From Candidatus Nitrosocosmicus agrestis (lineage in GTDB: Archaea > Thermoproteota > Nitrososphaeria > Nitrososphaerales > Nitrososphaeraceae), in NCBI RefSeq assembly GCF_008389435.1, contig NZ_VUYS01000008.1, positions 8,774 through 72,773 of the forward strand: a stretch of 64,000 nucleotides of DNA, read 5' to 3'. The position numbers and the translations under genes are program-made. Below the pieces are notes generated by a model, which was not told where the DNA came from, ran no database searches, and was given only the letters and a program-made list of their open reading frames with translations. Positions 22,184 to 40,183 of this stretch are shown here, in pieces (positions within the stretch are counted from its first letter, which is position 1; every line of letters starts with the position of its first letter).

Positions 22184-24634
22184 TTATTTTTTATTCGATT
22201 TTAAGGGGCACTGTGGGTTCATACAGAACTGCCATTGATATTTTTTACCTTGATTAATGCCATTGGCTGATATGATGGGCCAATTGCACTCTTTGCAGGA
22301 GTTTCCTGTACCCTTAATCATGCCCTTCAGGGGCAATGGAGCTGTAGCCATACATTTATCCTTAGAGTAGCTTGTGCAACCTGCAAATCTTTTTTTAGTT
22401 TTCAAAGCCTTTTTGATGACTAAATCGCCTTTTTTACAAATCGGACATTTTCCAAGTGGCTTGGTGGTGATATTTTTTTTTAGAACTGGAGTGTTGGACC
22501 TGTCCAATTCTAGTGATTGTGAAAGCTCAAAAGCAATTTTATCTTGGTTTTTGGTAAATGACTCAATAGCTTGCTTTACTTGGTCACGTGCTTGATTAAT
22601 GACTATCTCGCTACTTTTTTGACCCGCTTCTATTTGTTCCAATTGTTCTTCCATCTTTCTTGTTAGACTTGTAGATACTATGCTGGGAACGTATTTTTGC
22701 ATTGAGACTACTAATGCTACTCCCATTTCTGTAGGTCGGATGCCGGCTGAGCCCTTGATATTGATAAACAGATCTTTTTTTTCTGGGTTCGTACCTATTT
22801 TTACAACCAAATCATCCTGTTTCTCCACCTTGTTGTTCTTACGAGTAGTATAAATTTGCGATATATGAGATGATTTGTTGTTACTTTCCAATAAAGTATT
22901 GGGTCTATAATCATAAATGTAATTTCTCTTGTATAGGGTGTTTATTATTTCGGATCGTGTTGCCTTGGTCCCTATTTTCTCTCTTTCCATTTTTTGTAGT
23001 AGGGTTGATTGGTTGTACCTCGGAGGGGGTTGTGTAGCCTTTTGGATCGATTCAATCTTTATTAATTTTAAAATATTATTTTTTTTCAAAAATGACAATG
23101 TTTCCTTCTTCACAAAGGTAGGTAAATCTAAATAAGGCTGGTAATATTTTATCCATCCTTCTGTAAGTATTTTTTTTTCTTCAGCCTTAAAGACATGTTT
23201 ATTCTTGACGGTGATGGTTACCCAAATCTGATTGTAAAAAGCCTCTTGTCCAAATGTTGAAAAAAACCTTCTCGTAATGAGGTCAAGAAGTTTTTGCTCC
23301 GAAGCATCTAGGGACCTTTTGGCTTTTTCTCCAGTTGGATATATAGCCGGATGAGCTGGGTCTTCTTGTTTTCCCTCGTTAGGAGATAAATGTTTTAGTG
23401 AAAGTAGCCTTGAGCATATGTCTGGATAGGATAGGATTGCATCATTTCCAGTACTTTTTTCAAAAGTTACACTATTTACAAATATCCCATTCTTTGATAT
23501 ATTAGAAATAATTTTGTTATAATTTATTGTAGGGGGAAGCTTTTGACTAGATGTTCTGGGATAAGAGATGAGTGCATCAAGGTACAGTTTCTCTGCTATG
23601 GAAAGGGTGTAACTTGGAGTAAATTTGAATACTCTATAGGCTTCTTTTTGGAGATCCCCTAGATTAAAAGGATATGGTGGTTTGATTGATGTTTTGGTTA
23701 TTTTTACCTCTGTTACCTTGCCAAGCTGATTCTTACATTCTGCAATTATTTGAAGGACACTTTTTTCTAATTCAATCTTTTGGGGGAAATGGGATGTATG
23801 GATTATTGTGTCATCTTTTTGAAAATCTGCATTTATGTTCCAATAAGGAGTCGATATATGATCTGAAATTTCTTTCTCTCTTTCTACTACAAAGGCAAGA
23901 GTTGGGCCTTGAACTCTTCCTATTGAAAGTTGAATGAATTTCTTGACGTTGTTATTTTTAGCAGATCGTTTTTTTAAGGAATTCGTTAAAGCTCTTGAAA
24001 GGTTTATTCCATAAATGAAATCTATCGTGTGTCGGGATATACCTGCTTCTTTTAAATTGTTGTTGGGTGGTAACAGGTTTTTAAATGAATTTATTATTTC
24101 TTCATCAGTAAGTGAGGAAAATTTGGCTCTTTTTGATCTGGAGTATTTATTATGGCAGGCATAATGGAGGATATTGTATCCTATTACTTCACCTTCTTGG
24201 TCATAATCACATGCATGGATGAACTCTGTTGCATATTTGGATACAAATTCCAATTCTTTTAGGACTCTTCCCACCTTGAATTGTAGGGATTTGGTTTTAG
24301 AATCATTCGAACGTATAGAAGACAGTGGTTTCCAGATCGGATCGAATATGGGTGATGACTTGTCCTTGTTGTATGAACCTTCAAGCCTATACAAGTGCCC
24401 AAGAGCGTAACCGATAACATACATTTTACCTTTTTTAGTAACTATCGTATCAAATATTGAGGATTTTGACATCTGAATCTCGGATGAAGATGTTGCATTT
24501 CTTTGAATTTGCGCCTTTGCCTCAGGAATTGATCCTACAGTGACTTTCTCTGAGAAACTATAGGATCTTAATGCCTGGGAGACCCTCTTAGCCGATGATG
24601 ATTTCTCGCATATTATTAGACTTAGGTTAGATAT
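22184..24634 (-). CDS. topA: DNA topoisomerase type IA; start codon non-canonical
   Basis: This enzyme relaxes negatively supercoiled DNA by passing single strands. The TOPRIM Asp motif D-Y-D-Q-E-G-E-V-I-G is present, as is the catalytic Tyr in I-S-Y-P-R-T-S-S. Also visible are G-R-V-Q-G-P-T and C-terminal zinc ribbons (C-P-I-C, C-T-S-Y-S-K-D-K-C, C-K-E-C, C-M-N-P-Q-C). The first ATG (24472) would remove the conserved N-terminal strand. Reading upstream in frame gives L-S-L-I-I-C-E-K-S-S-S-A-K-R-V-S-Q-A-L, the TOPRIM Glu-Lys segment. Only ATT and ATA codons lie between that and a TAG at 24644-24646. I place the start at ATA 24632-24634 (816 residues). A TATA-like box sits about 24 nt upstream. 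Confidence 0.85.
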   Translation of the reverse strand: MSNLSLIICEKSSSAKRVSQALRSYSFSEKVTVGSIPEAKAQIQRNATSSSEIQMSKSSIFDTIVTKKGKMYVIGYALGHLYRLEGSYNKDKSSPIFDPIWKPLSSIRSNDSKTKSLQFKVGRVLKELEFVSKYATEFIHACDYDQEGEVIGYNILHYACHNKYSRSKRAKFSSLTDEEIINSFKNLLPPNNNLKEAGISRHTIDFIYGINLSRALTNSLKKRSAKNNNVKKFIQLSIGRVQGPTLAFVVEREKEISDHISTPYWNINADFQKDDTIIHTSHFPQKIELEKSVLQIIAECKNQLGKVTEVKITKTSIKPPYPFNLGDLQKEAYRVFKFTPSYTLSIAEKLYLDALISYPRTSSQKLPPTINYNKIISNISKNGIFVNSVTFEKSTGNDAILSYPDICSRLLSLKHLSPNEGKQEDPAHPAIYPTGEKAKRSLDASEQKLLDLITRRFFSTFGQEAFYNQIWVTITVKNKHVFKAEEKKILTEGWIKYYQPYLDLPTFVKKETLSFLKKNNILKLIKIESIQKATQPPPRYNQSTLLQKMEREKIGTKATRSEIINTLYKRNYIYDYRPNTLLESNNKSSHISQIYTTRKNNKVEKQDDLVVKIGTNPEKKDLFINIKGSAGIRPTEMGVALVVSMQKYVPSIVSTSLTRKMEEQLEQIEAGQKSSEIVINQARDQVKQAIESFTKNQDKIAFELSQSLELDRSNTPVLKKNITTKPLGKCPICKKGDLVIKKALKTKKRFAGCTSYSKDKCMATAPLPLKGMIKGTGNSCKECNWPIISANGINQGKKYQWQFCMNPQCPLKSNKK

Positions 24635-24989: not shown

Positions 24990-25619
24990 TTAGTCCCATT
25001 TCCATACCTTGGTGAATCCCTTGCCCAAAGGATCTACGGTCTTCTTATAAATACCGAATATGTTGTTAATATTCATAGTACTGTTAGTAGATGTGGCATT
25101 ACTAGAACTAGATCCACTTTCTTTTGAATCTTGGAATGGAATATCGAACATCATTACTCCATTGTCAGTAAAACTTCCATCAGGATTATAGTAACCTTTG
25201 GATTCTGTCTTGTATGTAAATACCTGCCCATTTTCATTCAATATAATGGCTTGACCCTGGGAATAAACTGCTCCATCTGCACCCATTTTATCTACAATGG
25301 TTCCTATGGTCTGCGTTGTTGACCTGTTCATAGTACTATTCCCTACATATGAGACTTCAACAGTCGGCACAGGATCTATGCTAAGGACTCGAGTGTTTGT
25401 TGATTTTGTAGTTTCTGTATAGATGGGTGGACCCAAAGTTTGATTTGATTGGTTCTTGATTAAATAAGGATTCAATGACGAAAAATTGCCCTGGGCATAT
25501 GCAATTGATACATCATGTGGTGTTACTAAAAAAGCGAGGGGTATAAGTGTTATCACTCCTAGAGAAACCAATAACCAACCTGCTCCTGAGATTGACTGAT
25601 ATATTTCACATAAATTCAT
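24990..25619 (-). CDS. Secreted protein, intact paralogue of the 32.5-kb remnant
   Basis: This is a 209-residue protein. A hydrophobic helix at residues 12-33 is followed by A-Y-A-Q, a plausible export cleavage site. The mature domain is beta-rich (V-E-V-S-Y-V-G-N-S-T, S-T-T-Q-T-I-G-T-I-V, Y-Y-N-P-D-G-S-F-T-D-N-G-V). It then has a Ser/Asn linker and the tail G-I-Y-K-K-T-V-D-P-L-G-K. A degraded copy lies 7 kb downstream. The function is unknown; it is probably a surface protein restricted to this lineage. Confidence 0.75.
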   Translation of the reverse strand: MNLCEIYQSISGAGWLLVSLGVITLIPLAFLVTPHDVSIAYAQGNFSSLNPYLIKNQSNQTLGPPIYTETTKSTNTRVLSIDPVPTVEVSYVGNSTMNRSTTQTIGTIVDKMGADGAVYSQGQAIILNENGQVFTYKTESKGYYNPDGSFTDNGVMMFDIPFQDSKESGSSSSNATSTNSTMNINNIFGIYKKTVDPLGKGFTKVWKWD

Positions 25620-27815: not shown

Positions 27816-28496
27816 TTACTTTACATTCAAAGTATATGTAGCTGCCCATGGTTTGACCGAAACGCCTTCGGCCAGAACACCGGAAAATTGGATGATATAT
27901 TTACCTGATGTTAATGGTTCTGTAATTACATAAGTATTATCTGATGCCGCCTTGAAATGACCTTCAGGGGCATACCAAATTGCATCTTTCGGAAATTCAA
28001 CGTCAAATATTCCTGTGGATGTCCTATATTTTTTAAGTTGATCAAATGAATATGCTTTTCCATCCAAAGAAAGTCTCATATCTACTACCCGGTCTTGGTC
28101 GGATTTTGCTAAGTACACTAACCTTTGATCATCACATGGGTCTTGTTTACACGGATCCTCCGCATTGGACTGCTCCATTGAGCTGATCATTATTAATACA
28201 TTTTTTCCATGGGGTATTTGACAATTCTCGTTGCCACTGCCAGTCAAGAAAAATACGGGAGAGGTGGAATTTACCTGACCTGTCTCGCAAGGAATGTCTG
28301 GACCCTTGTCAGGATTAATGGGTTCAGGAATAGATAATAACCATTGCCAGTATTTAACTCCCCACTCAGCATAGGGTATACCATGAGGGTAACTGTCCGG
28401 CGGAAATATTTCAACGGCAAATATCTCTTGATGAAAATTAATTATATATAATCCTATTAATATTGAAAGAAAACCAACAGTTAAAGTTAAATTCAT
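27816..28496 (-). CDS. Secreted protein with Tyr/Trp-rich N-terminal motif
   Basis: This is a 226-residue protein with a signal peptide (hydrophobic residues 3-20, then V-E-I-F). The mature N terminus carries Y-P-H-G-I-P-Y-A-E-W-G-V-K-Y-W-Q-W-L-L-S-I-P, a distinctive block. It has four to six Cys residues (D-I-P-C-E-T-G, N-C-Q-I, D-P-C-K-Q-D-P-C-D-D) that could pair. The beta-rich C terminus ends K-P-W-A-A-T-Y-T-L-N-V. I have a vague memory of this block in environmental secreted proteins but cannot name a function. Confidence 0.75.
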   Translation of the reverse strand: MNLTLTVGFLSILIGLYIINFHQEIFAVEIFPPDSYPHGIPYAEWGVKYWQWLLSIPEPINPDKGPDIPCETGQVNSTSPVFFLTGSGNENCQIPHGKNVLIMISSMEQSNAEDPCKQDPCDDQRLVYLAKSDQDRVVDMRLSLDGKAYSFDQLKKYRTSTGIFDVEFPKDAIWYAPEGHFKAASDNTYVITEPLTSGKYIIQFSGVLAEGVSVKPWAATYTLNVK

Positions 28497-28549
28497 TTAC
28501 TTTCATCTCGCATATACGGATACAAAAAGATTATGATGTGGGAACCGCA

Positions 28550-29920
28550 ATGGTACGGCTATTAGGGCCATATAAGCCTCGGTATTTAAACAAACGATAT
28601 ATTTTCATCATTATTATTGTACTCTTCTTGACTATTATAGTAGATACCTCATTCGTAAAAGTCTATGATATAGTAGCTAAATCTGCAATAAGCTATGACA
28701 TAAAGTATGTAATATTTTCAACAAATACTGCAACCAGCTTGATTGCTCAAATAATTATGCTTTTTTACTTAAACAAGTTCTATCGAGAAGAGCGATTTAA
28801 GAATCTGTCGGCTAATTTCAAGAAATATTCCTATTTGGCAATGTTTGTAGTTCTGCTCAATTCTGCTCTACTAAGCTATACATCAGCGCAACTTTTCCAA
28901 CAACATTTATACAGTAAATACATACTGGTTTATTCAATAATATTATGTTATATTTCTTCAGGTATTTTTCTCGCTGTCTTGGGGGCAAAGTTTCTTTCTT
29001 GGTATAGGCGAAATCATAGTTACTTGATTTTATTATACTTTGTGTCTGTAGCCTTAATTGTATTTAACATATTGACTTCTATGTTAATCACTATCGTAAA
29101 GTTGGAGGACAAATCTGATCAAATCAGGGAATATATTGGAATCACAAGTTTTCCTGATTCTCCTAAATATAATGTATTGGAATTAATAAATAAAATATCT
29201 CTTATTATGACCTTTGTCAGCCTTTGGATTACAACGTTTGTCTTAGTTACATCATATCGAAAAAAATCTCTTCGAAATTTCTTATTCTTAATGATCTTAA
29301 TTCTTCCGCTTTCCTATTTCTTCATAAATTTTGTCATTCAGTATTATGTATTTGATGTGTTTAATTATTTCCATATGGTCAGTCCGGTAGTGATTTCTAT
29401 AGTATTAGTAGCAGTGTTTAGTTTAAGTAATCCTATTGGAGGCATCACATTTGGAATATTGTTCTGGAGAACATCCAAGGCAATAAGTTATGAAAAGGAT
29501 ATAGTTGGATTTGTCCTTATCTCTGGATATGGAATAATGATGATTTTTATGTCTAACCAGGTAACTTCTCTTTCAATTACTCCATACCCTCCTTTTGGAT
29601 TAACTACTATTTCCTTACTTCCATTATCTTCTTATTTAATGCTAGTGGGAATATACAATGCGACTAAATTAGTTTCCTCTAATAGAGAACTTAGACGATC
29701 AATTATTAGAATTGCTAAAGAATCAACAATATTAAATCAAATGGGTGAGGCTGAAAATCAAAAGGAGGTAGAATTTGTCATATCAAAAATTCATGAAGAC
29801 TCGATTGTAACTAATTTAGAGACGGATATCAAACATGGGGCTGATTTAGACGAAAATGAATTGAGAAAATATATTGAAGAGGTTGTTAAAGAACTGCATA
29901 CTGAGAACCCTAATGCATAA
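28550..29920 (+). CDS. Multi-pass (about 10 TM) membrane protein
   Basis: The product has about ten hydrophobic helices and a charged cytoplasmic tail rich in Glu (residues about 395-456). ATG 28550 (M-V-R-L-L-G-P-Y-K-P-R-Y) is chosen because the earlier in-frame start at 28463 would overlap the divergent secreted-protein gene. There is no transporter signature. It is probably a lineage-specific integral membrane protein; the tail could bind a partner. It is divergent from the secreted-protein gene. Confidence 0.75.
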   Translation: MVRLLGPYKPRYLNKRYIFIIIIVLFLTIIVDTSFVKVYDIVAKSAISYDIKYVIFSTNTATSLIAQIIMLFYLNKFYREERFKNLSANFKKYSYLAMFVVLLNSALLSYTSAQLFQQHLYSKYILVYSIILCYISSGIFLAVLGAKFLSWYRRNHSYLILLYFVSVALIVFNILTSMLITIVKLEDKSDQIREYIGITSFPDSPKYNVLELINKISLIMTFVSLWITTFVLVTSYRKKSLRNFLFLMILILPLSYFFINFVIQYYVFDVFNYFHMVSPVVISIVLVAVFSLSNPIGGITFGILFWRTSKAISYEKDIVGFVLISGYGIMMIFMSNQVTSLSITPYPPFGLTTISLLPLSSYLMLVGIYNATKLVSSNRELRRSIIRIAKESTILNQMGEAENQKEVEFVISKIHEDSIVTNLETDIKHGADLDENELRKYIEEVVKELHTENPNA

Positions 29921-30612: not shown

Positions 30613-32046
30613 TTATATTTGTTTTTGTAATACTGTAACCATATTATCCATATACCAAATTGGTTTGGTATCGTTTGTTACTTTATATAGTTCCTTCAAT
30701 TCATTAGTTTGGTTAATGGCGTTTTTCAACTGACTTGTTACTAATAAATTAGTCATATTGTTATAGGTATCATTCAGAATTGCATTAGTTAGCTGATAAT
30801 TCTGCACTTCAGTTGGGTTTGAAAAATTGTAATATATTGGATTTACTGGATATGCAAGATCTTTAATGGATTCCCAAAGCAAGATACGATGTCCTATCAA
30901 ATCTTCCGTTGTAAACTCCTTTTGTCCTGCTCCTGAATGTGTTGAACCTGTGCCATTTGAAACATCACCGAATGTTAGACTAGCCCAATCATTATATCCT
31001 GCTAAATTTTCGCCACTTGATCTTAAACAACCCTCTGAAGGTATGTTATTGATGTCTGCATGTACTCCTAGGTCTGTGGTTGTATCGTCACGTGACCAAT
31101 CTACGGGGATACCTGTAAATGTAAATTTAATTGGAGGTGGACCATATGCAGATATCATATTTGGGGGAGTGCTCATTCCTAACCCTTCTACCTCATTCAA
31201 ATTATTTTCATTCAATAATGGTAATACCGATCTCGAATAGTCTAGCGTTCGGTTCCCTAGTAGGCTTGACATCTGGTATGCATAATTCATTACACTCAGA
31301 TAGTTTGGTTTACAGTTAATATCGTTCCAGCCTCCATGATCGAGACCTAAGTTATGTCCTAATTCATGCATAAAGGTCCCTGATTGTTGATCTATACTTC
31401 CTACATTGTGACCTGTTGCAGGATCGGATCCCCATTTTGAGGCCCCTAAAGTTACCATAAACTCCTTGCCGGGCATATTGGGACTTTCACCAGATGATGT
31501 ACTGTAGGGTTGAGTGTGACCAAATATGGCATAATGAGTAGCAATTTCTCTTGCGTTTATTACGTTATCTCGATTTGCATCCGCTCTTTCAACAACATTT
31601 CCCAAATGCAATCCCTTGTATTCATAAAGATCGTCCGAATTCATATTATCTTCATGGGGGAGTTGTTCATCTATGTTAATGTGTAAATTGATTCCATTAT
31701 TACCATCAGGATTGACAGAAGGGGAATTAGCAAAAGATGTTATCACTTCGTCTAATGCGGCTTGATTGGGTCTATGATTTTCCATAAAATCAACTTCCAC
31801 AAATATATCTTTGTGCGACGGATCGGATCCCATGGCCGGTAGGTCCAAATCGATGTTTCCATCATTATTGATATCAAGACCGTTAATTTCCCATGAATTC
31901 AATAATCCGTCGCCATCGTCATCCCCGCCAATAAGGAATTCTGTACTATTTGATTTCGGGTTTGCTTGGACTGAGTTGTAATTCATTAATAAAATACCAC
32001 AAATTAAGTAGTACATTAATATCATAAATATGATTTTGGATTTCAT
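30613..32046 (-). CDS. Secreted zinc metalloprotease (metzincin type)
   Basis: This is a 477-residue protein. A signal peptide (residues 4-24, ending V-Q-A-N) is followed by Asp-rich calcium-type loops (D-D-D-G-D-G-L-L-N-S-W-E and D-I-N-N-D-G-N-I-D). The zinc site F-M-H-E-L-G-H-N-L-G-L-D-H matches HExxHxxGxxH. The Met-turn candidate S-V-M-N-Y lies about 20 residues later, defining a metzincin. The C-terminal 120 residues are helical and unassigned. It is expected to degrade extracellular proteins. It converges with the hypothetical gene at 30 kb. Confidence 0.88.
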   Translation of the reverse strand: MKSKIIFMILMYYLICGILLMNYNSVQANPKSNSTEFLIGGDDDGDGLLNSWEINGLDINNDGNIDLDLPAMGSDPSHKDIFVEVDFMENHRPNQAALDEVITSFANSPSVNPDGNNGINLHINIDEQLPHEDNMNSDDLYEYKGLHLGNVVERADANRDNVINAREIATHYAIFGHTQPYSTSSGESPNMPGKEFMVTLGASKWGSDPATGHNVGSIDQQSGTFMHELGHNLGLDHGGWNDINCKPNYLSVMNYAYQMSSLLGNRTLDYSRSVLPLLNENNLNEVEGLGMSTPPNMISAYGPPPIKFTFTGIPVDWSRDDTTTDLGVHADINNIPSEGCLRSSGENLAGYNDWASLTFGDVSNGTGSTHSGAGQKEFTTEDLIGHRILLWESIKDLAYPVNPIYYNFSNPTEVQNYQLTNAILNDTYNNMTNLLVTSQLKNAINQTNELKELYKVTNDTKPIWYMDNMVTVLQKQI

Positions 32047-32497: not shown

Positions 32498-32902
32498 TTA
32501 ACATAACTTCTGCACCTGCGGTATGCTGTTCCCTGATGGATCAACTGTTGTTTTATAACTACCAAAGACATCATTGAATTTATGGATAAAGCTATTACTG
32601 ACACTGCTTGTTCCTTTAAGAATGCTGTGGCTATTTGTGCTTTCAAATGGAGATTCAAAAATTATAACGCTGCTATCTGAGAAACTTCCATCAGGATCAT
32701 GATGAAGAATAGATTCTGATTCATGAGTTAAGATGTTGCCGGATGCAAATAAAATTATGACTTTGACCTTGAAATGTAACACCACATTTTCATCCAATGT
32801 GCCTATTATTGTTCCAAATGTTTGAGTTGAAGGGCCTTCTATAGTACTGTTTCCAGTATAAGTTACTTCAACAATGGATAGCGATTTATATCTAATATAC
32901 AC
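32498..32902 (-). pseudogene. Truncated paralogue of the 25-kb secreted protein
   Basis: The 134-codon frame aligns with the secreted protein at 24990-25619. Matching blocks are V-E-V-T-Y-T-G-N-S-T, S-T-Q-T-F-G-T-I-I, D-P-D-G-S-F-S-D-S-S-V and G-S-Y-K-T-T-V-D-P-S-G. It lacks the signal peptide and the first 60-70 residues, and the last residues differ. Without export it is unlikely to work, so I read it as a decaying duplicate. Confidence 0.75.
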
Positions 32903-33520
32903 AAGCTAATGGATTTTTACATTTTCGACATAAAAAGATCCCCATTCAAATCTGAACTTACTTTGTCATAAATATGTTGTAATTTATCTTTTCCTAGTGA
33001 TTGTGACTCTATTTAAACATATGAATTAGCATTGGTATCGTATAAACCAAAAATGCTAAATAATGAAATTGGAACACCAGACAGGGGAAATATCGCAATA
33101 CTTTTCCCATCTAAATAACATCCAATTTATTTTCCTTTGCAGAATTAATTAGCAATAAAAATATGACTGTACTACAATAAAGTATTATTACATTGCACTA
33201 ATTGCAAATCTACAGTTCATTGTTGTATAGAGTTCTTTTCTCGCAATTAGGTCTACTAATCCCTACGTCTAGCTAAAAATGATAAACGTGTTAGAATTGT
33301 TTGATCAAAGTGTCTCTTAAACCAGGGTTTGAGACATCTAGGTGTATACATTAGAGTTAAAATTTTTCTGTGGGTATGATGTCGTACAATAACTATTAAT
33401 TAAAATGATTTTGGAATGTTTTGAGAATTTATTACTATTTGAAGCTGTTAATGTCTATTCTATCTCCTTAAGTGAATAAATTGGACTCCTTTGTGACTTT
33501 GATATTTTATTCAATCTAAG
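32903..33520. other. Intergenic with one hairpin
   Basis: 618 bp of AT-rich DNA. An imperfect hairpin at 33311-33336 (TGTCTC and GAGACA arms with an inner AAAC/GTTT pairing) is the only structure noticed. No gene was seen. Confidence 0.45.
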
Positions 33521-35340
33521 TTAATTACCAAAATAATCTGCATCCTTAATTTTTGAACTAAATTCAAATTCACATCTTGATTCTATTTCTGATAATCCTA
33601 CTTGGTACACTTTAAATTCATCAAGCTGAAAAGCTTCTATTTGATCGAGATTTTGAGTCAATAAAAATCCTTTAGCCTAAGGATACTATTTTCCACAAAT
33701 ATAACTACCTCCCAGAATTCCATAGGGATTTTTACATCCCTATAGACCTTATCATCCTCATAAAATACTGGTCCGCCAAATATGCTAATCTTTAAATCGT
33801 CACATCCCCTTCATCAAAAACAACGTCCTCAAGTTTACCCCAAATTCCCCCCTTTTGCAGATTGATTGAATTTGTCCATCTGTGGAGTTATATTTGTGAA
33901 GTAGGAAGAGTCTTTTTACCTTTTTGGCCTCCGCGATTGGGCCCCAAATTAGATCTGCTCTTCTAGCAATATGATCTCTATCCAAATCATTACCTCGGTA
34001 TAGTTCATCTCAATCTTGATATTCTGAAGGGATTCGTGGATCCTCGATAAAAGGGATTCCACTTCTACTAAGTTTTTTTAGTAGATTACCAGCCACATTC
34101 CATCCTGCCCAAATTGGAAACTTCCTTACTTTATTCAGCGTAAGTGAAAAATAGGTGTAGTCAATTATTTCAGAGCCGTTCAATATGAATGCCGATTGTG
34201 CATTATTTTCTGATAAAGTGGGATGGTCTATGTCTACTTTAAGAAAATTGATATCAAATCCGATCGGTCTTGCGAGTTTAAAATGAGAAGGTCTTGTAAG
34301 AGATATTTCAAGTTTCTCAAATACTGATTGAGGATAACAAGCTATTGCATATTCTGCGGGATTTCCAGACGCTTCCCTTGCGAAAAGTATTCCTGCCATA
34401 ACGTCTGTGGGCCTTCCCTCACTTGACTTAAACACCTATACAGATCCTGAATCTCTCTCATACTAATCCCGCCATTTTCTGGTGGGTTTGCAGGGTCAAT
34501 CTCTATTTCAAACCCGCCAATTACTTTTTTACCTATTGATCCACTATAATCTATTTTTGCTATGGTGTGGATTCTTGTCACCTCACCATGAGTAACACCA
34601 GTTGTTCGCCCTCTTTTAATAACATTGTCTCCAAGCTCTGTTTCTCCCAATTTTTCTACAGAGGCTCCTAACTCCATTATCAAATTATTAAACTCACGAT
34701 TCTCAATCGAAGAAATAGCACGATTACCTGCCTGTCCCAAATGGGATCTTGCTAACTTTCCAATTTTCTTTAGGTGAGAACGGTTATCATCTTATGGTCC
34801 AGGTTGTACCATGTCATCTATAACAACCCCATTTGCACCATGAAACACATGTCAATCACTCAAAATACGTGGTATTCCTGTTGCTTTATCATAACAAAAC
34901 ATCCTATGGTACCGACTGTGCCCTTAACATTGGATATACTGATTCCGGCATCATCGGGTCCAGATGGATCTTCCTATCGTTTGATATTATCTCTTGAATT
35001 AATTTGAATTCTACTTTGAATTTCCTTTGTAAAACATCTGCTAGTACTTCTACTCCATCTATTTCAATTGTTTTTGGCATTGGTGTAGAGCCTAACTTGC
35101 CAACATTTTCTGGTTGAGCTTTAGTTTCAACGGTAAAATGGATGGATATCTCTTCGGTCCTTTCCCCATTTTCTAGTTTGAAGCTATTCTTATTGATGAA
35201 ATCTTTGGATCTTTTAGATATCTGCTCCTCTTGTTCAAATGAACTCTCAATTTATCCATCGAAATCGTCTTTTTATTCAAACTTACTTTTTTCTTAGCAG
35301 AAATTTTGTTATCATTTACTCTTTTACTTTTCCCTGCCAT
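33521..35340 (-). pseudogene. Wrecked trypsin-like protease / NUC1 endonuclease fusion gene
   Basis: Read by hand across frames, the minus strand yields one ancestral protein. It starts M-A-G-K-S-K-R at 35340. A trypsin-like domain follows (S-N-V-K-G-T-V-G-T-I-G-C; R-I-L-S-D-stop-H-V-F-H-G-A-N-G; R-D-S-G-S-V-stop). Then comes a DNA/RNA non-specific endonuclease (D-Y-T-Y-F-S-L; D-P-R-I-P-S-E-Y-Q-D-stop-D-E-L-Y-R-G-N-D-L-D-R-D-H; Y-F-T-N-I-T-P-Q-M; I-F-G-G-P-V-F; L-D-E-F-K-V-Y-Q-V), ending at TAA 33521-33523. In-frame stops are at 34852-34854, 34792-34794, 34436-34438 and 34010-34012, with about seven frameshifts. The nuclease motif has RDH where DRGH is usual. Confidence 0.85.
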
Positions 35341-35492: not shown

Positions 35493-36664
35493 CTATATCC
35501 GCCATCCTATAATTCCTGTAGCAATGGTGGTAAGAATGGTCCATGTGCCAGTCAGAGGGTTGAACCAGTCAGTCAACCATGTTTGTACTGTCTCTGAGAT
35601 CGGAATGGGATCCGCAATAGTCAAAACTATTGGGAACCTTTTCATTAAGTTTTCACTGTTTGTTTTCAATATTGGGTTTTCATGTTTTTGTGGATTCACT
35701 ATGGGACTATAGAATGTTGAATTTAGAAAACTTATATTTGCTATTATGAAAAACGTTTTTGTCCCAGGATTGATGATTCCCTCCAAGTTTGATGTTAAAG
35801 TTATGCTAGTGAATCCATATGGAGGAACCGGGATGACTCTATTTTCTAATGTAAAATTTATTCACTTGGGAACATTTTCCACACTCAGTTCTACCACAGG
35901 TTGAATCCAGGTAGTTGAATTCACTAATATTTCGATACTTTTTTTATTCCCTGGAATCAGTTGGAGGACTTCAGGCTTGGTGGAAACTGTGAATCCTGGA
36001 GGGGGAATATACACCCATCTTACCGCATCTAACAATTAATAGTCGTTAGTTAAGGAATATGCATAAAAAATAGATGATACTTATTGGGACAAAACATGGC
36101 TTTGAGGTCTAAATCAAGTGTGATAGAACTACTTTTTCTGTCATAGAAACCTTGATGATAGTAATCGATATCAGAGATGTTTCTTGTATGACCTTCAGCT
36201 GAAAACTCGTTAAATGATCTATTCCACTTTTTTGGAGTATCATTCCATTTTATTTCCACCTGATAATCTGTTCATTGGTACCCATTGTCATTGTTAAAAT
36301 CCAAGTTTACTAGTATTCGGTAGTAGACCTGTCCTGTGTTTGAAAGCCCATCTGCTTTGAATAAATCTGAAATTGAATCAAGCCAAAAAATGGAGTTTAG
36401 GTGTCTTCCATCTGAAATATAATTGACGGATTTAATGTCTGTGAATGATGGACCTTTGATACTTTGTTCGAAATTGGTATCTCCAGTAACCATGTCTACC
36501 CAATCGAATTTACCGCCCCTATTCTCCTAACCTTGAAAATTTGGAGAATATTGAGAAAAGACATTATCACTAAAGGAAAAACCCAGAGCTATTAATATGG
36601 TTAAAACTAAACATGATAACAGCAAATAATTCGGGTGTAAAACCATATGAAGTGGGTATTTCAT
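35493..36664 (-). pseudogene. Wrecked gene for a membrane-anchored surface protein
   Basis: The frame opens at ATG 36664 with a signal peptide (L-L-L-S-C-L-V-L-T-I-L-I-A-L-G) and runs in one frame through a TAG (near 36531) and a TGA (36272-36274). After another stop and at least one frameshift near 36020-36050 it continues as W-V-Y-I-P-P-P-G-F-T-V-S-T-K-P. A further TGA follows, and it ends in a hydrophobic anchor (W-F-N-P-L-T-G-T-W-T, then I-A-T-G-I-I-G-W-R-I). The ancestral protein was about 390 residues, extracellular and C-terminally anchored. It is not functional as read. Confidence 0.8.
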
Positions 36665-37399: not shown

Positions 37400-40183
37400 C
37401 TATTTTTTTTCTTTATGATTTTCGTCCTTGTCTATCATTAATGGTTTTTTTGACCAATCTCCTATCCACTCCTTTATTGAATTAGCACATACTTCTGCCT
37501 GCCTTCTAACAAATCCGTCTATATCTGATTTGGCAATTTCCATCAAGGCCTCTAAAGTACCAAGAGTGGGAGCATCTGGTAAATCCAAAAACTTCGCGTT
37601 ATCATCAGATAAGGCTTTGCAAGCATTTATCTTGATTCTTCTTCTATCACTTCTTAAAAGTTCTTTGAGTTTATCCAGTACTTTGATTTGAACCTGCTGC
37701 ACATTCACGCTATTTTGATGCGTCTTGCTTCTCAAGAATTTTCCTAAACAGGTAATAGCTTTAGAAATAACAAAATAATCTTTAGATTCTTTTGTGCTTT
37801 CTAATAGAATCTTGATACATTTTAAATAAATTTCCTCATCTTTTTCTTCATTGAATTCTCTTATGCCTTCCAAAGCCCCGGTGGCAAAAACGCTTTGGAA
37901 TGTATTTGAGGTCTCTACTATATCCATTAGTTGGGATATTATTTTCTTTTTTGTTTTGATAGGTACATGTGATGATTTAGCACTTTTTCCTATTGCTGTT
38001 GCGGCAGCCGACATTACAAAAATATTTTCACCTGTATCAGACACCAATAGTTCTTCTAGTAAATTGATTGATTCTGGTCTCTCAAAGTTGCCTATATTTT
38101 TGACAATTGCTCTTTTCACTTCCGGACGTAACCTTTGATACACCGATGTGTCTCTAAAAATTGATAACAGTGCCTGATATGCCATATTCGATTTATCAAA
38201 GTCATTTTTGTCGTAAAAAGATCCTAAAGTATTTGCAGCCTCGACACTCACTCCATAAAACGAGTCGTTGTATAACGTTTCTTTCAAAGCAAAAACGGTT
38301 TCTTCAGAGTATAAATCTCTCAAGAGTCTTGTTGCGTCTATCCTTTCTATTACTGTCTCACCATTTTTCACTTGAGAAGAAACTAGATCTTTAATTTTAA
38401 AATCGGTAGATTCATTTAAAACCTTGACACTTTTGATTTTCTTTAAGATTTTAAAACTGGGGTCTATAGAAATTGAACTGAATGTTGCTTCGGCCGGAAA
38501 TTCAATTTTGGCTTCTGTATCAGTGCCATCCACTTCTATTATGTGCTGTTTCTGATTATTGCTTCCTTTTTCATCAGTATACCTGATTAAAAACTCTAAA
38601 GGAAATTTATAATGCAGTCTGTTATTCTCGTTTTCTATCCTGTCAGTTTTTTGGATAACCTTTATTTTTAGAGTCTTTACTTTAGATTCACTATTTTTAT
38701 AATGATCCTCTAATTCCAATCCATATTCTACTGCTATTTCAGGATGACCAGATTTGAATACCCATTGATCGAAAAAAGAATGCAATTCAGCTCCAGCGAC
38801 TTGTTCAAACACTTTCAATAAATCAAGTGTTTCAGCAGATCCCTGTTGATAGGTTTGTAAGTATTTTTTAACACTTTCTCTGAAATCTGTTTCGCCCAAC
38901 TGCCTTCTAATCATGTGAACAATAATACTTGCCTTTTCATAGGAATGAGCATCAAAAAGGTCATCAGGATGTTTGTACAAATTTGTTACTATTGGTCTAA
39001 TGTATTCATCTTCTGCCTCTTCAAAATAGATATCGGCATATTTGATGAGGTTAAAGTGAAATTCATCTTTTCCTCTTGATTTCTCCCAATATAGCAGTTC
39101 ACAGTATGTAGCAAACCCTTCATTTAGCCAGATATGAGGCCAGTCTTTACAGGTAACCAGATTACCGAACCATTGATGTGCTAATTCGTGTATTATCAGT
39201 AATATGTCATTATGATAGTCTACAACTAAGCTATCATCATGAAAAACATTCCTTGTGATAGTAGTACAGCTTGTATTTTCCATTCCTCCAAATTCAAAGT
39301 TATCCACCGCAGTCTGAGCATATTTCTGGAAAGGATATGGAATTTCAAAGTAGTCTTCCAAAAATGAAATCATGCTAGGAGTTTCGACAAAAGTAAGCAT
39401 TGGATCAAAATTTTTCTTAGTGTCTAAAGGCCAACAATAAGAAAGAGGCACTTTGTTATATTTAGACTCCATCACAGTAAATTTGCCAATTACAACTGAA
39501 ACTAAATAAGCTGCCAGTGGGATTTTTTGAGAGTATTTCCATATTATTTTACCGTTTTCCTCTTTTTTTGATTCCAGTAAACCATTTGCAATTGCCAGAT
39601 ATTCGTTTGATGTTGTTATTTCCATTTCTAACGTAAACTTCATTTGAGGTGAATCCACGCAAGGAAACCAATAGCGTGCCTCTGTAGCCTCACCTTGCGT
39701 CCATGCTTGATATACCGCATTAAGCTCGTCAATATTGTTCTTGGATATGAAATGAAATCCATTTCTGGGGGTGACTATTTTCTCCTCCTCCAAAGTCTTG
39801 ACATATCCTGCCGAATATATGATTGAAAGATCGATTAACTCTCCTTCTTTTATAAAGTCAGAAAAATCTATAACCAGTTTGCCTATTGATTGTTCTGCAA
39901 ATCTTGAGATTCTATGGGTGGATGATTCAACCTTAATTATTTTTAATTCATAAATGTCTAAAACAATACTCGATATCCTTCGCAATGATATCATTTTGAT
40001 GTTCTGTAAGCAATCGCGGAGTAACATATTGGAAAAGTCCGGATTAATTTTTAGTGTCATATGCTCAATTTTGAATGAATATATGTTTGAATAATGAAAT
40101 TTACTTCCTGGTAGATTGAATTGTTTTATTGATCCAGACTTTGGTAGATCATCACTATTTTGTTTAACATAACTATATTTCAT
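37400..40183 (-). CDS. M1-family zinc aminopeptidase with C-terminal HEAT repeats
   Basis: This is a 927-residue protein. It has the exopeptidase motif G-G-M-E-N and the zinc site H-E-L-A-H-Q-W-F-G-N followed after 18 residues by N-E-G-F-A-T-Y (residues about 329-352). The N-terminal domain binds substrate (M-T-L-K-I-N-P-D). Residues about 600-910 are helical repeats of the HEAT type (S-V-E-A-A-N-T-L-G-S-F and similar), as in the longer puromycin-sensitive/tricorn-factor branch. It removes N-terminal residues from peptides, probably downstream of the proteasome. It starts at ATG 40183. Confidence 0.93.
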   Translation of the reverse strand: MKYSYVKQNSDDLPKSGSIKQFNLPGSKFHYSNIYSFKIEHMTLKINPDFSNMLLRDCLQNIKMISLRRISSIVLDIYELKIIKVESSTHRISRFAEQSIGKLVIDFSDFIKEGELIDLSIIYSAGYVKTLEEEKIVTPRNGFHFISKNNIDELNAVYQAWTQGEATEARYWFPCVDSPQMKFTLEMEITTSNEYLAIANGLLESKKEENGKIIWKYSQKIPLAAYLVSVVIGKFTVMESKYNKVPLSYCWPLDTKKNFDPMLTFVETPSMISFLEDYFEIPYPFQKYAQTAVDNFEFGGMENTSCTTITRNVFHDDSLVVDYHNDILLIIHELAHQWFGNLVTCKDWPHIWLNEGFATYCELLYWEKSRGKDEFHFNLIKYADIYFEEAEDEYIRPIVTNLYKHPDDLFDAHSYEKASIIVHMIRRQLGETDFRESVKKYLQTYQQGSAETLDLLKVFEQVAGAELHSFFDQWVFKSGHPEIAVEYGLELEDHYKNSESKVKTLKIKVIQKTDRIENENNRLHYKFPLEFLIRYTDEKGSNNQKQHIIEVDGTDTEAKIEFPAEATFSSISIDPSFKILKKIKSVKVLNESTDFKIKDLVSSQVKNGETVIERIDATRLLRDLYSEETVFALKETLYNDSFYGVSVEAANTLGSFYDKNDFDKSNMAYQALLSIFRDTSVYQRLRPEVKRAIVKNIGNFERPESINLLEELLVSDTGENIFVMSAAATAIGKSAKSSHVPIKTKKKIISQLMDIVETSNTFQSVFATGALEGIREFNEEKDEEIYLKCIKILLESTKESKDYFVISKAITCLGKFLRSKTHQNSVNVQQVQIKVLDKLKELLRSDRRRIKINACKALSDDNAKFLDLPDAPTLGTLEALMEIAKSDIDGFVRRQAEVCANSIKEWIGDWSKKPLMIDKDENHKEKK

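What the first reader, a model, noticed from the sequence alone, without database searches (positions are those of the whole stretch)
33521..35340. Serine protease/NUC1 endonuclease fusion gene in advanced decay
Hand translation across frames recovers both domains end to end, with about seven frameshifts and four stops. Two stops fall at conserved Trp codons: before the catalytic His (S-D-W-H-V) and after the Ser motif (D-S-G-S-V-W). The intact ancestor would be a proteolysis-linked nuclease, a plausible defence or toxin-like effector. Its loss in this lineage is informative.
Basis: seen in the sequence. Interest (0 to 1): 0.6.

Follow-up and report, generated by a model that had tools for sequence, protein, structure and literature searches.

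The report
Broken protease-nuclease gene in soil archaeon
A soil ammonia-oxidising archaeon carries the wreck of a gene that in its close relatives, and in some soil bacteria, still makes one protein with a protein-cutting and a DNA/RNA-cutting half; the wreck is an ordinary case of gene loss, and the intact two-enzyme protein is the part worth studying.

Summary
Window 35340-33458 (minus strand) is a pseudogene of a 632-636 aa fusion: an N-terminal NAL1-like (trypsin-fold) serine protease and a C-terminal DNA/RNA non-specific endonuclease (PF01223). Intact single-ORF orthologues exist in four other Candidatus Nitrosocosmicus genomes. Full-length homologues at 45-53% identity sit on Streptomyces, Tsukamurella and Rhizobium plasmids. 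The gene occupies a variable slot between an M1 aminopeptidase and topA; at least three relatives have the slot without it, and another genus keeps a broken tail of the same gene there. The adjacent exported-protein gene is also broken, here and, with different lesions, in two relatives. No paralogue in this genome replaces the loss. The defence or toxin reading is not supported by direct evidence: no PADLOC match and no conserved partner gene. Best mechanism for the intact protein: a cytoplasmic two-domain hydrolase whose protease controls the nuclease in cis. This is inferred, at about one in three. Overall an ordinary pseudogene of an uncharacterised but already annotated family.

The parts
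33458..35340 (-). Pseudogene of the NAL1-like protease / Endonuclease_NS fusion; residues 1-630 of a 632-636 aa protein
   Evidence: Frameshift-aware alignment: 8 frameshifts, 5 stops; intact orthologues
34300..34950 (-). Remains of the protease catalytic core (about residues 131-350): His165 kept but preceded by a stop at W164; Asp207 to Asn; GDSGS followed by a stop at W303
   Evidence: profile-profile match to archaeal NAL1-like proteases
33544..34261 (-). Remains of the Endonuclease_NS (NUC1) domain (about residues 362-602); DRGH reads DRDH; stop at G445; four frameshifts in the second half
   Evidence: PF01223 hits
35496..36613 (-). Second pseudogene: 403-aa exported, membrane-anchored protein of unknown function; 1 frameshift, 4 stops
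   Evidence: intact copy L010 16540-17748
32504..32935 (-). Remnant of a paralogue of the 209-aa gene at 24990-25619
   Evidence: tblastn 46% identity to the G004 copy, E 5e-33
37400..40183 (-). Intact M1 aminopeptidase, conserved neighbour on one side of the slot
   Evidence: PF01433 E 8e-54; found in 13 of 15 genomes searched in the genus, this one included
22184..24472 (-). Intact topoisomerase gene (Topoisom_bac), conserved neighbour on the other side of the slot
   Evidence: PF01131 E 7e-101; synteny
24990..25619 (-). Conserved 209-aa gene next to topA; marks the slot without the fusion in G013, G006, G005 and, on a short contig, G002

Best explanation
Shown: the locus is a pseudogene, at the ancestral position, of a two-domain hydrolase (N-terminal NAL1-like trypsin-fold serine protease, C-terminal NUC1/Endonuclease_NS nuclease). 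It was lost in this lineage by point changes and small indels and was not replaced by a paralogue. The fusion sits in a variable slot between an M1 aminopeptidase gene and topA, where several neighbouring genes are also eroding. Inferred, step by step: the family probably entered the archaea from soil bacteria (about 0.7). The intact protein has no visible signal sequence and so probably works in the cytoplasm (about 0.7). The protease half controls the nuclease half in cis, by cleavage of the linker near residue 350-362 or by steric restraint, so that a nuclease harmful to its own cell stays off until a trigger (about 0.35). The payoff would be stress- or infection-triggered degradation of nucleic acid. 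Loss is tolerated because the gene is a dispensable accessory.
For: Intact orthologues of 632-636 aa in four same-genus genomes, 73-76% identical to the G004 copy. Positional orthology: the M1-403aa-fusion order is shared with G004, inside long synteny. Deep-invariant residues kept 165/200 (82.5%) in the window copy against 97-99.5% in intact copies. The window branch carries 53% of nonsynonymous change in the three-way comparison, against 21-42% for six intact neighbours. No other PF01223 or fusion copy in the genome. Protease family: profile match at probability 99.96% to archaeal single-domain proteases, which match solved plant NAL1 structures at E 3e-7. Nuclease: E 3e-43 to PF01223; nearest solved structures are Serratia nuclease, NucA-type and EXOG. 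His165, Asp207, Ser299 and the DRGH/N/Q motifs are invariant in all seven fusions, archaeal and bacterial, so both domains look active in intact copies. Stand-alone nucleases begin at residue about 361 in G035 and an Arthrobacter plasmid, so the linker is a real module boundary.
Against: Nothing shows cleavage of the nuclease by the protease. The published pro-nuclease/protease pairs use MBL-fold nucleases on separate chains (PMC12799240). The stand-alone nucleases show that the domain can exist without the protease. The structure prediction failed (mean pLDDT 29), so domain packing is unknown. Synonymous sites are saturated (pS 0.72-0.75), so dN/dS on the broken branch could not be measured directly.
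Confidence: 0.8

Rival explanations
1. The intact protein is a scavenging or turnover enzyme that degrades protein and nucleic acid side by side, without a regulatory link; the fusion only keeps the two activities together.
For: In G009, G011 and G008 the fusion is next to M6 and M14 peptidase genes, with a V8-like protease further along in G009 and G011: a hydrolase cluster. No sensor domain and no conserved partner gene in bacteria.
Against: No signal sequence is visible on the fusion or on the M6, M14 and V8 proteins, which does not fit extracellular scavenging; an unrestrained cytoplasmic NUC1 nuclease should be toxic to the cell.
Confidence: 0.3
2. The intact protein is a single-gene antiviral effector: infection activates the protease, which frees the nuclease to destroy DNA.
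For: Works-like analogy to pro-nuclease/trypsin pairs in Hachiman and AVAST (PMC12799240); patchy distribution in a variable slot and on plasmids.
Against: No PADLOC match to the fusion (weak chance-level hits only); no conserved neighbouring defence gene; no sensor or oligomerisation domain identified.
Confidence: 0.25
3. The lesions are sequencing or assembly errors and the gene is intact in the living strain.
For: Three or four of the eight frameshifts lie near runs of 4-6 equal bases; the genome is a draft recovered from a metagenome.
Against: Illumina data (PMC8573960, if the genome is N. agrestis as size and contig number suggest); four of eight lesions are far from any run; 927-aa and 762-aa neighbours are intact; deep-invariant residues including the catalytic Asp are replaced.
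Confidence: 0.02
4. The fragments are still expressed as separate working proteins (for example the 141-aa piece at 34010-34435).
For: Two pieces stay open for 132-141 aa.
Against: No piece contains a whole domain; the protease triad is split and mutated; the nuclease is cut by four frameshifts and a stop.
Confidence: 0.02

Closest known systems
'DNA/RNA non-specific endonuclease' fusions on actinobacterial and rhizobial plasmids (WP_326673403.1, WP_068739888.1, WP_208245492.1)
   Same: Full-length co-linear homologues, 45-53% identical over 93-100% of the protein, with the same catalytic residues
   Different: Intact, bacterial, different neighbours; public annotation names only the nuclease half
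Trypsin-Endonuclease_NS architecture reported from Fusobacterium nucleatum, NP_604177.1 (PMC2605481)
   Same: Serine protease joined to Endonuclease_NS in one chain
   Different: Called by PF00089, which our protease domain does not match; whether it is the same family was not tested
NARROW LEAF 1 (NAL1) proteases and their archaeal single-domain relatives
   Same: Same trypsin-like family by profile-profile comparison and by the relatives' match to NAL1 structures
   Different: No nuclease domain in the archaeal and plant members seen here; the direct Pfam Nal1_C score of the fusion is below the cut-off
Serratia nuclease / NucA / EXOG (Endonuclease_NS) family
   Same: C-terminal domain, with DRGH and the N/Q motifs
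   Different: The solved members listed carry no protease domain
Pro-nuclease/trypsin pairs of Hachiman, AVAST, Lamassu and DRT (PMC12799240)
   Same: Idea of a trypsin-like protease governing a nuclease
   Different: There the nuclease is MBL-fold and on a separate chain, and the protease is fused to a sensor enzyme; not homologous as a system

Membership tests
Endonuclease_NS / NUC1 (PF01223) | Profile match above the curated cut-off | tested here: met
   Intact orthologues 146-148 bits against cut-off 23; pseudogene pieces 50 and 31.5 bits
Endonuclease_NS / NUC1 (PF01223) | DRGH catalytic motif | tested here: met
   Invariant in seven intact fusions; DRDH in the pseudogene
S1-like (trypsin-fold) serine protease, NAL1-like branch | His/Asp/Ser triad in order with SNxH and GDSG motifs | tested here: met
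   H165, D207, S299 invariant in intact fusions; broken in the pseudogene
S1-like (trypsin-fold) serine protease, NAL1-like branch | Profile relationship to NAL1-like proteases | tested here: met
   hhalign 99.96%, E 3e-39 to archaeal relatives, which hit NAL1 chains at E 3e-7; direct Pfam score below cut-off
S1-like (trypsin-fold) serine protease, NAL1-like branch | Trypsin fold in three dimensions | tested here: inconclusive
   AlphaFold model with two sequences failed, mean pLDDT 29
Known anti-phage defence system | Match to a PADLOC defence model | tested here: not met
   No relevant hit to the fusion
Known anti-phage defence system | Protection against phage | not testable with these tools
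   Needs a plaque assay
Contractile-injection-system cargo | Sheath gene in the same genome | tested here: not met
   No PF04984 in 15 Nitrosocosmicus genomes, controls positive; only the Streptomyces canus copy is near tail-like genes
Pseudogene | Multiple disabling lesions plus relaxed constraint, with intact orthologues at the same position | tested here: met

The most novel reading that the evidence does not exclude
A NAL1-like protease fused in cis to a NUC1 nuclease is a self-contained, protease-gated suicide nuclease shared by archaea and soil bacteria: the one-chain counterpart of the recently described pro-nuclease/protease defence pairs, repeatedly lost in Nitrosocosmicus.
Probability: 0.2. 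Interest if true: 0.65.

Novelty: new member of a known kind. Interest (0 to 1): 0.3.

Why it matters
The pseudogene itself is a clean but ordinary case of accessory-gene loss. What could matter is the intact family: a strongly conserved protease-nuclease in one chain, shared between soil archaea and soil bacteria and annotated only by its nuclease half. If the protease gates the nuclease it would be a one-gene version of a control principle just described for antiviral immunity. The set of intact, absent and broken copies in a single genus gives a natural comparison for what the gene does.

Tried and rejected
dN/dS: synonymous sites saturated; replaced by residue-retention and branch-share tests. 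Contractile-injection cargo idea, raised by tail-like genes downstream of the Streptomyces canus copy, rejected for the archaea: no sheath gene in the genus. Viral contig scan for relatives: none. Phage records: partial, weak matches only. Genome-contig scan used narrow patterns and returned only two Nitrosocosmicus copies already known from G011 and G008. M6 and M14 neighbours searched in plasmids: in the listed places they did not co-occur with fusion homologues. Terminal repeats around the island: none convincing. Laying the whole genome in the Python box was not available. Read coverage over the lesions could not be checked: no reads.

Full report
1. What is there. The window is part of a 3.22-Mb, 43-contig genome. 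Related records are named Candidatus Nitrosocosmicus, and size and contig number equal those published for Ca. N. agrestis (PMC8573960); that identity is an inference. On the minus strand from 35340 to 33458 lies a broken gene. tblastn with intact orthologues recovers it in pieces that change frame, E about 1e-144 to 1e-160. A frameshift-aware alignment against the profile of four orthologues covers residues 1-630 of 632, with 8 frameshifts, 5 in-frame stops, one inserted and one deleted codon, score 1775 against 28-33 for shuffled 1-kb pieces.

2. Decay, not error. Among 200 residues invariant in four archaeal and three bacterial fusions and aligned in the window copy, it keeps 165 (82.5%); each intact archaeal copy keeps 97-99.5% in a leave-one-out test. 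Losses include the predicted catalytic Asp207 (to Asn) and the Gly of DRGH. Nonsynonymous distance to intact copies is 0.28-0.31, against 0.14-0.18 among most intact pairs (0.06 for the closest pair). In a three-way comparison with G009 and G004 the window branch holds 53% of nonsynonymous change for the fusion and 21-42% for six intact genes of the neighbouring block. Synonymous sites are saturated, so a formal dN/dS on this branch is not meaningful. The published assembly is from Illumina reads, and only three or four lesions are near short base runs. Neighbouring genes of 927, 762 and 477 codons are open.

3. Intact family. Four same-genus genomes have one open frame of 632-636 aa (G004, G009, G011, G008), 73-76% identical to the G004 copy. 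The C-terminal half is Endonuclease_NS, E about 1e-43, nearest in solved structures to Serratia nuclease, NucA-type nuclease and EXOG. The N-terminal half has no Pfam match above cut-off, but compared as a profile it matches archaeal single-domain proteases at 99.96% probability. Those match Nal1_C and Trypsin_2 and solved plant NARROW LEAF 1 chains at E 3e-7. His165, Asp207, Ser299 and the nuclease motifs are invariant across seven intact fusions. The N-terminus is lysine/arginine-rich with no hydrophobic stretch visible by eye.

4. Beyond the genus. tblastn against plasmids finds full-length co-linear homologues in Streptomyces canus (52.8%, 99% covered), Tsukamurella tyrosinosolvens (49.1%) and Rhizobium (45%), annotated only as DNA/RNA non-specific endonuclease. 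Their neighbours differ: transposase, patatin and tail-like genes; catabolic genes; tyrosinase. Within 398 genomes of the phylum, only this genome and G004 gave strong matches covering both domains; the other 18 were protease-only relatives or fragments. In 70 genomes of the family, only the four intact copies, the window copy, a nuclease-only copy in G035, protease-only relatives and fragments appear. The patchy archaeal spread and high identity to actinobacteria suggest transfer from bacteria; no tree was built. Nuclease-only relatives start at residue about 361 (G035, Arthrobacter plasmid), marking the module boundary.

5. The slot. In G013, G006 and G005 the order is M1 aminopeptidase, a 209-aa gene, topA, with nothing of the fusion; G002 agrees on a short contig. 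In G004 and the window the fusion and a 403-aa exported protein gene lie in this slot. G009 and G011 have in addition M6 and M14 peptidases, two small proteins and a V8-like protease between the two genes. In G024, of another genus, the slot between topA and the 209-aa gene holds a C-terminal remnant of the fusion with two stops. The 403-aa gene is broken in the window (1 frameshift, 4 stops), in G004 (5 frameshifts, 6 stops) and in G011 (1 stop), with mostly different lesions, and intact in G009. The slot is therefore a variable and eroding region, and the fusion's loss is one of several losses there. No paralogue replaces the fusion in this genome.

6. How it most likely worked. The evidence shows two probably active hydrolases in one chain. 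Established knowledge of NUC1 enzymes says that an unrestrained copy in the cytoplasm is dangerous, so some restraint is needed unless the protein leaves the cell. Control of the nuclease by the protease in cis is my first choice (about 0.35), side-by-side degradation second (0.3), single-gene antiviral effector third (0.25; this overlaps with the first). Published pro-nuclease/trypsin pairs (PMC12799240) show that the principle exists, but with an MBL-fold nuclease on a separate chain. No PADLOC model matches the fusion.

7. Known or new. The trypsin-Endonuclease_NS architecture was listed in 2008 for Fusobacterium (PMC2605481), and the family is already annotated by its nuclease half. The pseudogene is a new member of a known kind. 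Paper searches found no description of the NAL1-like/NUC1 fusion, but subscription journals were not covered.

Noticed in passing
window 35496-36613; L011 6975-8119; L009 9033-10241: A 403-aa exported, C-terminally anchored protein next to the fusion is broken with mostly different lesions in three lineages and intact only in G009 among those seen.
   Followed up: yes
L010 8415-17748; L009 894-10274: In G009 and G011 the fusion heads a run of hydrolases without visible signal sequences: M6, M14, two small proteins (one NigD-like) and a V8-like protease. The V8-like gene is broken in G011 (1 frameshift, 1 stop).
   Followed up: partly
G012:C84:1028-3744: The M1 aminopeptidase next to the slot is itself decayed in G012 (many stops and split matches).
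   Followed up: no
window 32504-32935 and 24990-25619: The conserved 209-aa gene beside topA has a decayed second copy about 7 kb away, suggesting a past duplication in the slot.
   Followed up: partly
window 27816-29920: A pair of genes without Pfam matches (226 aa, 485 aa) whose relatives recur near the fusion in G004 and G009.
   Followed up: no
L042/L047 (Streptomyces canus plasmid NZ_CP109336.1): The bacterial fusion lies just upstream of a contractile-tail-like cluster (baseplate J, weak sheath match) with a NACHT-domain gene further on.
   Followed up: partly
window 30613-32046: Intact 477-aa predicted exported metallopeptidase with an HExxHxxGxxH motif in the same slot; no close match in the G004 or G009 stretches examined.
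   Followed up: no
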